Below, one piece after another: positions 10,537 through 63,173 of a stretch of DNA of 64,000 nucleotides; the stretch's first letter is position 1; every line of letters begins with the position of its first letter. Location of the stretch: positions 868,001 through 932,000 of the forward strand of contig NZ_CP018099.1 in assembly GCF_001886815.1 (NCBI RefSeq), read 5' to 3'. The translations under genes and the position numbers were made by a program. The notes beneath the pieces were generated by a model, which was not told the DNA's origin, searched no databases, and worked only from the letters and a program-made list of their open reading frames with translations. This DNA comes from Caldithrix abyssi DSM 13497. Lineage in GTDB: Bacteria; Calditrichota; Calditrichia; Calditrichales; Calditrichaceae.

Positions 10537-10582
10537 TTGACATTTTCAATATCCTTTCGTAAAATGGTGTACGATAGTGCAT
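10537..10582 (+). promoter_or_regulatory. lexA promoter with putative SOS operator
   Basis: The -35 TTGACA (10537-10542), a 17-base spacer and the -10 TAAAAT (10560-10565) form a near-consensus sigma-70 promoter. One base later comes GTGTAC-GATA-GTGCAT (10567-10582). The same GTGTAC half followed by N4 and an inverted half (GTACAC) occurs at the same place relative to the -10 of the dinB operon (61669-61684). This argues for autoregulation by LexA through an operator over the transcription start. Confidence 0.72.
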
Positions 10583-10599: not shown

Positions 10600-11214
10600 A
10601 TGAAATCCCTGACAGTCAGACAAAAACAACTTCTGGAACTCATCGCCAAACATATTGAAGAAAAGGGGTATCCGCCAAGTTATCAGGAGCTGGCGAAAAA
10701 GATGAATATTCGATCTAAGTATGCCGTCTTAAAACACATCGACGCCCTGGTGCAAAAAGGTTATCTGGAAAAAGATTCGCTGGCCAGAGGGTTGCGCATT
10801 ATTGCCCCGCACTATCAGGTTCAACCTTCTCCGAACGTTGAAATCCCCTTGATCGGACAGGTAGCGGCCGGTTTCCCCATTCTCTCCGAGCAAAATGTAG
10901 AACGTTACGTGCCGGTGCCGCGCGCGCTGATTAAAGAAGAAGGACGCTACTTTGCCGTTAAAGTACAGGGCGATAGCATGGTTGGCGCCGGCATTTACGA
11001 AAACGATTTGCTGGTGGTCAATTCCACCAATCGCGCCAAAAATCGCGATATTGTGGTGGCGCTGGTAGGCGATGAAGTGACGGTAAAACGACTGATTACG
11101 CGACGGGGACACCATTACCTGAAAGCAGAAAACCCAGACTATCCGGATATTCATCCCAAACAAGAGTGGTCCATCCAGGGCAAGGTGGTCGGATTAATCC
11201 GTGAAATTCATTGA
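10600..11214 (+). CDS. lexA: LexA repressor, SOS regulator and S24 autoprotease
   Basis: This 204-residue protein is normal LexA length. The N-terminal winged helix covers residues 1-68 (LTVRQKQLLELIAKHIEEKGYPPSYQELAKKM). The C-terminal S24 domain has the self-cleavage site A90-G91 (QVAAGFP), nucleophile S126 (GDSM) and general base K163 (VTVKRL), so autocleavage is predicted to be intact. ATG 10600 is placed by GGGAGGG seven bases upstream; a longer reading from TTG 10537 would start inside the -35 element. It overlaps a LexA-like second gene by 14 bases. Damage-induced cleavage should derepress itself and probably dinB. Confidence 0.95.
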   Translation: MKSLTVRQKQLLELIAKHIEEKGYPPSYQELAKKMNIRSKYAVLKHIDALVQKGYLEKDSLARGLRIIAPHYQVQPSPNVEIPLIGQVAAGFPILSEQNVERYVPVPRALIKEEGRYFAVKVQGDSMVGAGIYENDLLVVNSTNRAKNRDIVVALVGDEVTVKRLITRRGHHYLKAENPDYPDIHPKQEWSIQGKVVGLIREIH

Positions 11215-11671
11215 ATCCGTTGTTTTAATGAATAACCAGAATGCAACGTTTGTCATGAAACAGAGCAGCAGCAACGCACACCAGTTTTACGAAATTCCGG
11301 TGATCGGCGAGGTCCATCTGTCAGAAGAGGATCGCCGTCTGTTGAGTAAATTCACCCTGGGCGAACTGCTTCAGAATTTTCAACAGGAAAATCGCGATTC
11401 GGTGGTGGTGCGCGCGCTGGATAACGCGCTGGCCGGAGAGGGCATTTTTAAAGGCGATCTTTTAACCGTGGATTTGCAAAGCCGTCCGCGATCCGGCGAT
11501 ATTGCGGCGGTTCAATTCGGGAGCAAACTTTTTATTCGAAAAATCTTCTTTAACAAAAACTACATCCGGCTGGAAACCGCTGAAGAAACTCCTTCTCCCG
11601 TTATCATCGACGAAAATACCCCGGGCGTAAGCGTGCTGGGCAGGGTGACCATGGTCGTGCGCGAACTTTAA
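11201..11671 (+). CDS. LexA-like S24-domain protein lacking catalytic residues
   Basis: This 156-residue protein resembles only the C-terminal half of LexA: the IGEV strand aligns with LexA IGQV, and VVRALDNALAGEGIFKGDLLTVDLQ aligns with LexA VKVQGDSMVGAGIYENDLLVVN. The catalytic Ser of LexA is Asn (N75), the Lys is Arg (R113), and the Ala-Gly cleavage pair is absent, so it should not cleave itself. There is no DNA-binding domain. GTG 11201 lies inside the end of lexA and is chosen for coupling, with AAGGTGG upstream; ATG 11228 is an alternative. It could dimerise with LexA or modulate it (inference). It is not UmuD, which keeps Ser and Lys. Confidence 0.78.
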   Translation: MKFIESVVLMNNQNATFVMKQSSSNAHQFYEIPVIGEVHLSEEDRRLLSKFTLGELLQNFQQENRDSVVVRALDNALAGEGIFKGDLLTVDLQSRPRSGDIAAVQFGSKLFIRKIFFNKNYIRLETAEETPSPVIIDENTPGVSVLGRVTMVVREL

Positions 11672-61636: not shown

Positions 61637-61684
61637 TTGCCTTTGGAGTGCGGTGATATTATATTTAGGTGTACGCAAGTACAC
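61637..61684 (+). promoter_or_regulatory. dinB operon promoter with putative SOS operator
   Basis: TTGCCT (61637-61642) and TATATT (61660-61665) are 17 bases apart. Three bases later is the perfect palindrome GTGTACGCAAGTACAC (61669-61684). The lexA promoter has GTGTAC-N4-GTGCAT in the same position after its -10. DinB is a classic LexA target, so this is likely the LexA box of this organism. Confidence 0.75.
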
Positions 61685-61705: not shown

Positions 61706-61960
61706 ATGATTTTCGAAGATATTTTTGAACCCATTGAAGTGATCAGCCACTTTAAAGACGGGCAAATACGCCCCCTGCGCTTTAAATGGAACGGCCGGGT
61801 GTACAAGGTGCACCAGTTGAACGGCCACTGGGTGAGCAACCAGGGCTACAGCAAGCAGTACCATTTTTCGGTGATGGCCGACACCTCGGATTACTTTGAG
61901 CTGTTGTTCGACAGCGGCAATTTTGACTGGCAAATCGCGCGGGTGTGTCTGGATGGCTGA
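61706..61960 (+). CDS. Small DUF6504-like protein, first gene of the dinB operon
   Basis: This 84-residue protein has a compact beta-rich core: PLRFKWNGRVYKVHQLNGHW, then YFELLFDSGNFDWQIARVCLDG. The pattern F-x-W-x-G-R-x-Y-x-V and a terminal ARV strand resembles DUF6504, small proteins often encoded next to Y-family polymerases. ATG 61706 lies 21 bases after the putative LexA box, with AGCAGGTG upstream. Its last 8 bases overlap dinB, so the two are co-translated. A role as a polymerase accessory factor is inference from context. Confidence 0.72.
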   Translation: MIFEDIFEPIEVISHFKDGQIRPLRFKWNGRVYKVHQLNGHWVSNQGYSKQYHFSVMADTSDYFELLFDSGNFDWQIARVCLDG

Positions 61961-63173
61961 GCAAACCGTTATCATGCACATTGACGCGGACGCCTTTTTC
62001 GCCTCGGTGGAGCAGGGCTTTAATCCCCGGCTGCGTGGCAAACCGGTGATTGTGGGCGGCCTGGAAAATCAGCGCGGCGTGGTGCATACGGCCAGTTACG
62101 AAGCGCGGGCCTGCGGAGTGCGCACGGGTATGCCGCTATTCAGGGCCAGGGCGTTGTGTCCGCAGGCGGTCTTTCTCAAAGGCAACTACGAACACTACCG
62201 CGCGGTGTCCGAAGTTTTCCGGGAAGTCTATTTGAAATACACGCCTGAGGTAGAGTTTACGTCGTTAGACGACGCCTATCTAAATTTAACCGGCGCCATG
62301 CATCTCTATCCTTCGGCGCGCCGGGTTGCCGAAGAGATTAAAGCGGAAGTCTGGCGGCGGGTGGGCGTCAGTCTTTCGGTGGGCATTGGCAGCAACAAGG
62401 TAATTGCGCGCATTGCTTCCGGGCTTAAAAAACCGGGCGGCGTAGTGGAAGTGCCGGCGGGCAAAGAACGCGAGTTTTTAGCCGGACTGCCGGTCGATGC
62501 GTTGCCCGGCATTGGCCCCATGGCGCGCGAAAAATTGTTCGATCTGGGAATTTTCAAGGTCGGTCAACTGGCCCGTCTGCCCAAAGGCATCATGGAACAG
62601 TTATTTGGCAAAAACGGGATTAAAATCTGGCATTTTGCCCGCGGCGAAGACGATCGGCCGGTGGCGGCAAAAATCTTTCCTAAACAGATCAGTCGTGAAA
62701 CCAGCTTTGAAGAAGACACCGCCGACCTGGAACTGGTGCGAGGCACGTTGCAATATTTGTGCGAGCGCATTGGCAAAAAATTACGCAGCGAGGAGCTGAC
62801 CTGCCGAGCCCTGGCCATCAAAATCAAGTACTCTGATTTTAAATTTCACACGGCCAGCGCGCGTCTGCCCTTTGCCACGAACAACGGCAACGAGCTGGAC
62901 AAAATAGCCCGGCAACTATTTGAACAAATTCGTCTGCGCCGCACGCGCATCCGTCATGTGGGCGTTTCCGTAAGCCACATCGAAGCGCTGAATTACCAGC
63001 TAACGTTGTTCAACGACAAAACGCGCCGCGAAGTACTGGATGCGGCCATCGACGAAATCCGCGAGCGTTTTGGTTTTATGGCCATTTTACCCGCCGACAC
63101 CCTGCAGCTACGCCGCAAATACCGCATGGAGCCCAACGGCTACATCCTGCACAATCCGGCCTTAACACGGTAG
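61953..63173 (+). CDS. dinB: DNA polymerase IV, Y-family
   Basis: This 406-residue translesion polymerase has HIDADAFFASVEQ (first metal Asp), the second catalytic motif SLDDAYLNLTG, SVGIGSNKVIARIASGLKKPGG, the HhH thumb LPGIGPMAREKLFDLGI and a little-finger domain with FKFHTASARL. In the second motif the usual Asp-Glu pair (SxDEA) reads Asp-Asp, a conservative change of the second acidic residue. There is no obvious C-terminal clamp-binding motif. ATG 61953 overlaps the small upstream gene; an earlier in-frame codon at 61896 lies deep inside it. Confidence 0.95.
   Translation: MAEQTVIMHIDADAFFASVEQGFNPRLRGKPVIVGGLENQRGVVHTASYEARACGVRTGMPLFRARALCPQAVFLKGNYEHYRAVSEVFREVYLKYTPEVEFTSLDDAYLNLTGAMHLYPSARRVAEEIKAEVWRRVGVSLSVGIGSNKVIARIASGLKKPGGVVEVPAGKEREFLAGLPVDALPGIGPMAREKLFDLGIFKVGQLARLPKGIMEQLFGKNGIKIWHFARGEDDRPVAAKIFPKQISRETSFEEDTADLELVRGTLQYLCERIGKKLRSEELTCRALAIKIKYSDFKFHTASARLPFATNNGNELDKIARQLFEQIRLRRTRIRHVGVSVSHIEALNYQLTLFNDKTRREVLDAAIDEIRERFGFMAILPADTLQLRRKYRMEPNGYILHNPALTR

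What the first reader, a model, noticed from the sequence alone, without database searches (positions are those of the whole stretch)
10567..10582. Shared putative SOS box at lexA and dinB
GTGTAC-GATA-GTGCAT at lexA and GTGTAC-GCAA-GTACAC at 61669-61684 sit 1 and 3 bases after the -10 of the two genes most expected to be LexA targets. The motif differs from the E. coli (CTGT-N8-ACAG) and Bacillus (GAAC-N4-GTTC) boxes, so it may define a lineage-specific operator.
Basis: partly seen in the sequence, partly recalled or inferred. Interest (0 to 1): 0.62.

Follow-up and report, generated by a model that had tools for sequence, protein, structure and literature searches.

The report
LexA (SOS) operator of Calditrichota bacteria
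The 16-base palindrome GTGTAC-N4-GTRCAY at lexA and at the dinB operon is almost certainly the DNA site that the DNA-damage repressor LexA binds in this bacterium and its relatives, a locally rewritten version of the familiar Bacillus/cyanobacterial site.

Summary
Confirmed and extended. GTGTAC-GATA-GTGCAT (10567-10582) and GTGTAC-GCAA-GTACAC (61669-61684) lie 1 and 3 bases after sigma-70-type -10 hexamers and are the only exact matches in this 4.98-Mb genome. Phylogenetic footprinting in Calditrichota makes the box a near-certain LexA operator: it sits at the same place before lexA in 17/18 genomes of three families (the 18th has a symmetrical variant) and before the dinB operon in 9/18 loci. 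It also precedes an addB-like nuclease gene (own genus) and a parE-like topoisomerase gene (own family and order). recA and uvrA of the own genus lack it, although recA in a sister family and recA/uvrA in a more distant one carry a box. Outside this clade the lexA box is GTGAAC-N4-GTATAC/GTTCAC, the Bacillus-like architecture. So the box is lineage-specific but not unrelated to the Bacillus box, and its GTAC-N4-GTAC core equals the cyanobacterial one. The operator change falls on one tree branch together with changes at LexA DNA-contact positions 41, 42, 44 and 45. New variant of a known kind; binding and induction untested. In passing: a protease-dead S24 protein is encoded directly after lexA across the phylum.

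The parts
10537..10565 (+). lexA promoter: -35 TTGACA (10537-10542), 17-bp spacer, -10 TAAAAT (10560-10565)
   Evidence: 11 of 12 consensus matches
10567..10582 (+). LexA operator GTGTAC-GATA-GTGCAT at lexA
   Evidence: conserved at the same place in relatives
10600..11214 (+). lexA (P0001): winged-helix LexA DNA-binding domain, Ala90-Gly91 cleavage bond, catalytic Ser126 and Lys163
11255..11671 (+). S24': second S24-domain protein (P0002) without catalytic Ser or Lys and without DNA-binding domain; directly downstream of lexA
61637..61665 (+). dinB-operon promoter: -35 TTGCCT, 17-bp spacer, -10 TATATT
   Evidence: 9 of 12 consensus matches
61669..61684 (+). LexA operator GTGTAC-GCAA-GTACAC (perfectly symmetrical half-sites) at the dinB operon
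   Evidence: conserved in relatives
61706..61960 (+). DUF6504 protein gene (P0003), first gene of the dinB operon
   Evidence: follows lexA in many relatives
61953..63173 (+). dinB (P0004), Y-family DNA polymerase IV

Best explanation
The 16-bp inverted repeat GTGTAC-N4-GTRCAY is the operator of this bacterium's LexA. A LexA dimer most likely places one recognition helix in each GTGTAC half-site. Because the box starts 1-3 bp after the -10 hexamer, it covers the start-of-transcription region and would block RNA polymerase at lexA(-S24') and DUF6504-dinB. After DNA damage, RecA-stimulated self-cleavage of LexA at Ala90-Gly91 (Ser126/Lys163) would release the promoters. The same box probably also controls an addB-like nuclease gene and a parE-like topoisomerase gene. 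Shown by sequence: site positions, promoter context, conservation across genera, intact LexA domains and catalytic residues. Inferred: binding, repression, induction.
For: (1) Only two exact genome matches, at lexA and dinB. (2) Before lexA, boxes scoring at least 11/12 occur in 17/18 genomes of families f1-f3 against 0.2 expected from Markov-resampled upstreams, and in 12/12 of f4-f6 for the broader GTGWAC form. Box positions carry 1.72 bits on average against 0.48 in the distal flank (the rows were anchored on the box, which inflates the first number). (3) DUF6504-dinB: 10/18 upstreams at least 11/12 (9 of them GTGTAC) against 0.07 expected. (4) addB-like: same box at nearly the same distance in G000, G001 and G002 although the proteins are only 67% and 51% identical to the own one. 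(5) parE-like: GTAC-N4-GTAC or GTAC-N4-GTGC boxes in 11 of 16 scannable f1/f2 upstreams, clearest at L191, L192, L196, L197, L199-L202 and L205. (6) recA boxes in 5/5 f2 and 4/5 f5 loci; uvrA boxes in f5. (7) Across 12 family genomes TGTAC-N4-GTACA occurs 32 times against 8 for the reversed control, about half of them before lexA, dinB, addB or the parE region. (8) Proteobacterial lexA upstreams fetched by another search: 0/50 carry this box, 15/50 carry strict CTGT-N8-ACAG. (9) LexA contact residues change where the operator changes.
Against: No binding or induction data. In the own genome the strict core TGTAC-N4-GTACA is not in excess over its reversed control (3 against 3) and the looser TRTAC-N4-GTDYA is below it (26 against 42); the case rests on position and conservation. 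recA and uvrA of the own genus have no box, so the induction loop would lack LexA-controlled recA. The histidine-kinase site (L014) is not conserved even in G001 and the oriC-side site (L017) is unexplained, so some near-matches are probably chance.
Confidence: 0.93

Rival explanations
1. The box is the operator of a different regulator that controls lexA and dinB (another winged-helix or S24-type repressor), while LexA binds elsewhere.
For: Binding was not tested; other S24 repressors have taken over SOS control in Bacteroidetes (PMC8565304).
Against: Canonical LexA is present with intact catalytic and DNA-binding domains. The box is in LexA's own promoter region in all 30 genomes. It keeps the GAAC-N4-GTTC / GTAC-N4-GTAC architecture known for LexA (PMC3091678), and it changes on the same branch as LexA contact residues.
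Confidence: 0.04
2. The two boxes are chance matches next to promoters.
For: Loose versions of the pattern are not in excess in the window or the genome.
Against: No exact match in 200 simulated windows; conserved at fixed promoter positions in many genera.
Confidence: 0.01
3. The box is a LexA operator, but LexA acts here as a constitutive or non-SOS regulator, as proposed for some cyanobacteria, rather than as a damage-inducible repressor.
For: recA and uvrA of the own genus lack a box; cyanobacterial LexA with the same core motif has been linked to non-SOS genes such as hox (PMC3091678).
Against: Cleavage bond and Ser/Lys dyad intact; the targets with conserved boxes are dinB, addB-like and parE-like, and recA/uvrA are targets in sister families.
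Confidence: 0.08

Closest known systems
Cyanobacterial LexA box RGTACNNNDGTWCB / AGTACWNWTGTACT (Nostoc and others; PMC3091678)
   Same: Same core GTAC-N4-GTAC and same half-site spacing; found by the same footprinting logic at DNA-repair genes.
   Different: Flank is TGTAC...GTRCA here, AGTAC...GTACT there; different phylum. The LexA recognition helices were not compared with tools.
Bacillus/Gram-positive LexA box CGAAC-N4-GTTCG (PMC3091678)
   Same: Same palindrome architecture and spacing; Calditrichota families f4-f6 carry GTGAAC-N4-GTATAC/GTTCAC at lexA.
   Different: One symmetrical change (A to T) in each half-site in the window's clade; LexA positions 41, 42, 44, 45 differ from those of the GAAC-type relatives.
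Fibrobacter succinogenes LexA box (TGCNC-N4-GTGCA, from memory, not checked here)
   Same: Same spacing; the G005 lexA box GTGCAC-N4-GTGCAA (L028) and the right half of the window's lexA box (GTGCAT) resemble it.
   Different: The dominant half-site here is GTGTAC; the Fibrobacter box could not be verified in the held literature.
E. coli LexA box CTGT-N8-ACAG
   Same: Same 16-bp length and promoter-proximal position; P0001 aligns with E. coli LexA without gaps through the recognition helix.
   Different: Half-site differs; 0 of 30 Calditrichota lexA upstreams contain it, 15/50 proteobacterial controls do.

Membership tests
LexA-type SOS operator | Palindrome in the promoter of lexA itself (autoregulation) | tested here: met
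   Box in 30/30 lexA upstreams, next to a -10 hexamer in the own genome
LexA-type SOS operator | Shared with other core SOS genes (dinB; recA, uvrA in some lineages) | tested here: met
   dinB operon, addB-like and parE-like in the own lineage; recA in f2, recA and uvrA in f5; not at recA/uvrA of the own genus
LexA-type SOS operator | A canonical, self-cleavable LexA is encoded | tested here: met
   TIGR00498 and Pfam hits; Ala90-Gly91, Ser126, Lys163 present and invariant in relatives
LexA-type SOS operator | Direct LexA binding and damage-induced derepression | not testable with these tools
   Needs gel shift / ChIP and mitomycin or UV induction
Bacillus-type box GAAC-N4-GTTC | GAAC-N4-GTTC half-sites | tested here: not met
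   GTAC-N4-GTGC/GTAC in the window; GAAC form only in families f4-f6
E. coli-type box CTGT-N8-ACAG | CTGT-N8-ACAG in the lexA promoter | tested here: not met
   0/30 Calditrichota lexA upstreams
Cyanobacterial-type box RGTACNNNDGTWCB | Purine before GTAC and GTWC right half | tested here: not met
   The base before GTAC is T at lexA, dinB, addB and parE; the core GTAC-N4-GTAC is met at dinB, addB and parE

The most novel reading that the evidence does not exclude
Calditrichota show a LexA operator being rewritten in place, without a retained second full-length lexA: from GTGAAC-N4-GTTCAC through mixed boxes (GTGAAC-N4-GTATAC) to GTGTAC-N4-GTACAY, in step with LexA residues 41/42/44/45 (H/Q-G-V-R to Y/F/N-A-L-K) on one branch, while recA and uvrA leave the regulon and addB joins it in the own genus. 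A protease-dead S24 protein co-encoded with lexA across the phylum modulates LexA or partners with DinB.
Probability: 0.35. Interest if true: 0.6.

Novelty: new variant of a known kind. Interest (0 to 1): 0.42.

Why it matters
It defines the SOS operator and a minimal regulon for a phylum for which I found no LexA or SOS literature in the held library. It also gives a single-branch example of LexA operator change with matching recognition-helix residues, testable directly by swapping four residues. Seventeen LexA motifs had been reported by 2021, and motif change is thought to follow lexA duplication (PMC8565304); here no second full-length lexA is seen.

Tried and rejected
Histidine kinase L014 as a target: its box is not found in G001 or any other family genome searched. 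Chromosome-end site L017 as a dnaA promoter box: the next gene is a dipeptidase-like ORF (my reading) and the site sits by DnaA-box-like sequence at the putative origin, so unexplained. Broad pattern GTRWAC-N4-GTWYAC with 1 mismatch in the own genome: 55 places against 40 in the control, mostly noise. A recA or uvrA box in the own genus: none. The Verrucomicrobia LexA paper (PMC4951493) is not held. The own second dinB-like gene (G000:C1:2043097) was not scanned; the loci of relatives' copies (L072-L077) show no box.

Full report
The observation. The lexA box starts one base after a TAAAAT that is 17 bp from a TTGACA; the dinB box starts three bases after a TATATT that is 17 bp from a TTGCCT. 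The exact pattern GTGTAC-N4-GTRCAY occurs at these two places only, both in the window and in the whole 4.98-Mb chromosome, and never in 200 simulated windows. With two mismatches allowed it is not clearly more frequent than expected, so the strict motif carries the signal. The second box belongs to a DUF6504-dinB operon. The relatives are named Calditrichota/Caldithrix records; the size and single contig suggest Caldithrix abyssi itself, which is my inference.

Footprints. LexA loci were found in 30 of 36 genomes of the phylum. In the families f1 (own), f2 and f3 a GTGTAC-type box starts 29-48 bp before the lexA start, typically just after a -10-like sequence. Of these 18 upstreams, 17 score at least 11 of 12 consensus positions against 0.2 expected, and the exception (G005, GTGCAC-AAAT-GTGCAA) is a symmetrical variant. 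Box columns carry 1.72 bits on average against 0.48 in the distal flank (the rows were anchored on the box, which inflates the first number). The DUF6504-dinB upstream has a box of at least 11/12 in 10 of 18 loci, nine of them GTGTAC-type. In many relatives lexA, S24', DUF6504 and dinB lie in one cluster, and in some of these DUF6504-dinB has its own box as well (L053, L070). The window's lexA and dinB, 50 kb apart, therefore look like a split cluster.

Other targets. An addB-like gene (ADDB_N and UvrD_C domains) has GTGTACTTGAGTACAA 32 bp before its start in G000 and G001 and GTGTACTTAAGTACAA at 34 bp in G002, although protein identity falls to 51%; other relatives lack it. A parE-like gene (DNA_gyraseB domain) has TTGTACATTCGTACAT in the own genome, and related boxes in most f1 and f2 upstreams. 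Topoisomerase control by the SOS response is known from Vibrionaceae and Bacteroidetes (PMC8565304). recA has boxes in f2 (GTATAC-N4-GTACAC/A, 5/5) and f5 (GTGTATTTTCGTTCAC type, 4/5) but none in f1; uvrA has boxes only in f5 among the families tested statistically. Across 12 family genomes the core TGTAC-N4-GTACA occurs 32 times against 8 for the reversed control. By my count 16 stand before lexA, dinB, addB or the parE region; many of the rest are inside genes.

Operator change. In families f4-f6 the lexA box is GTGAAC-N4-GTATAC, GTGAAC-N4-GTTCAC or similar, two of them containing an exact GAAC-N4-GTTC. The GTGTAC genomes form one clade of the LexA tree (95/99 support) on a long branch, with a single change needed (outgroup branches are long and the root is uncertain). 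P0001 aligns with E. coli LexA without gaps through helix III, whose DNA contacts are Ser39, Asn41, Ala42, Glu44 and Glu45 (PMC3091678). At these positions the GTGTAC clade has Y/F/N41, A42 (17/18), L/M/K44 and K45 (18/18); the GAAC group has H/Q41, G42, V44 and R45 (12/12 for the last three). Because this is one branch it is one event, so it fits co-evolution but does not prove it. Proteobacterial controls fetched have no such box (0/50).

Mechanism. The LexA is complete: winged helix, Ala90-Gly91, Ser126, Lys163. The box overlaps the expected start of transcription, so occlusion of RNA polymerase by a LexA dimer and release by RecA-stimulated cleavage is the natural reading. Binding, repression and induction are inferred. 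The absence of a box at recA in the own family suggests a RecA supply that is constitutive or otherwise controlled.

Known or new. Same half-site spacing as the Gram-positive box and same core as the cyanobacterial box (PMC3091678), different flanks; different from the E. coli box. Seventeen LexA motifs had been reported by 2021 (PMC8565304). No held paper links Caldithrix with LexA, or Calditrichaeota with the SOS response. I therefore call it a new variant of a known kind.

In passing. Downstream of lexA, all 28 lexA loci that extend far enough encode a second S24-domain protein, directly adjacent in most and about 1.6 kb away in two. Its catalytic Lys is Arg in 29/29 sequences, its Ser is lost in 27/29 and the Ala-Gly bond is absent. 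AlphaFold gives a confident core (block pLDDT 90 or more from residue 51) that matches LexA C-domains and UmuD'. A protease-dead partner of LexA or a UmuD'-like partner of DinB are the two readings I would test.

Noticed in passing
window 11255-11671 (+): S24': a LexA/UmuD'-fold protein without catalytic Ser/Lys, cleavage bond or DNA-binding domain, encoded downstream of lexA in 28/28 Calditrichota lexA loci that extend far enough. Possible LexA modulator or DinB partner.
   Followed up: partly
L303 about 1233-1248 (G000:C1:2830732-2830747): GTGTACGTTTGTTTAC, an exact match to the broad box, about 160 bp before an IS1182-like transposase gene; in G010 the core box also precedes a transposase-like ORF (L332, and the same sequence at a contig end in L325). 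Possibly LexA-repressed transposition.
   Followed up: partly
L302 1376-1391 (G000:C1:4978375-4978390): TAAAATG-GTGTACATTTTTGCAC beside DnaA-box-like TGTGGGTAA at the putative origin; same -10/box layout as lexA, no obvious target gene.
   Followed up: partly
L330 1501-1514 (G010:C308): TGTACTTTCGTACA about 200 bp before an mraZ-like gene (head of a cell-division cluster) in one family member.
   Followed up: no
window 61706-61960 (+): DUF6504 gene overlaps dinB and accompanies dinB or lexA in most Calditrichota examined; an accessory of Pol IV is likely but untested.
   Followed up: partly
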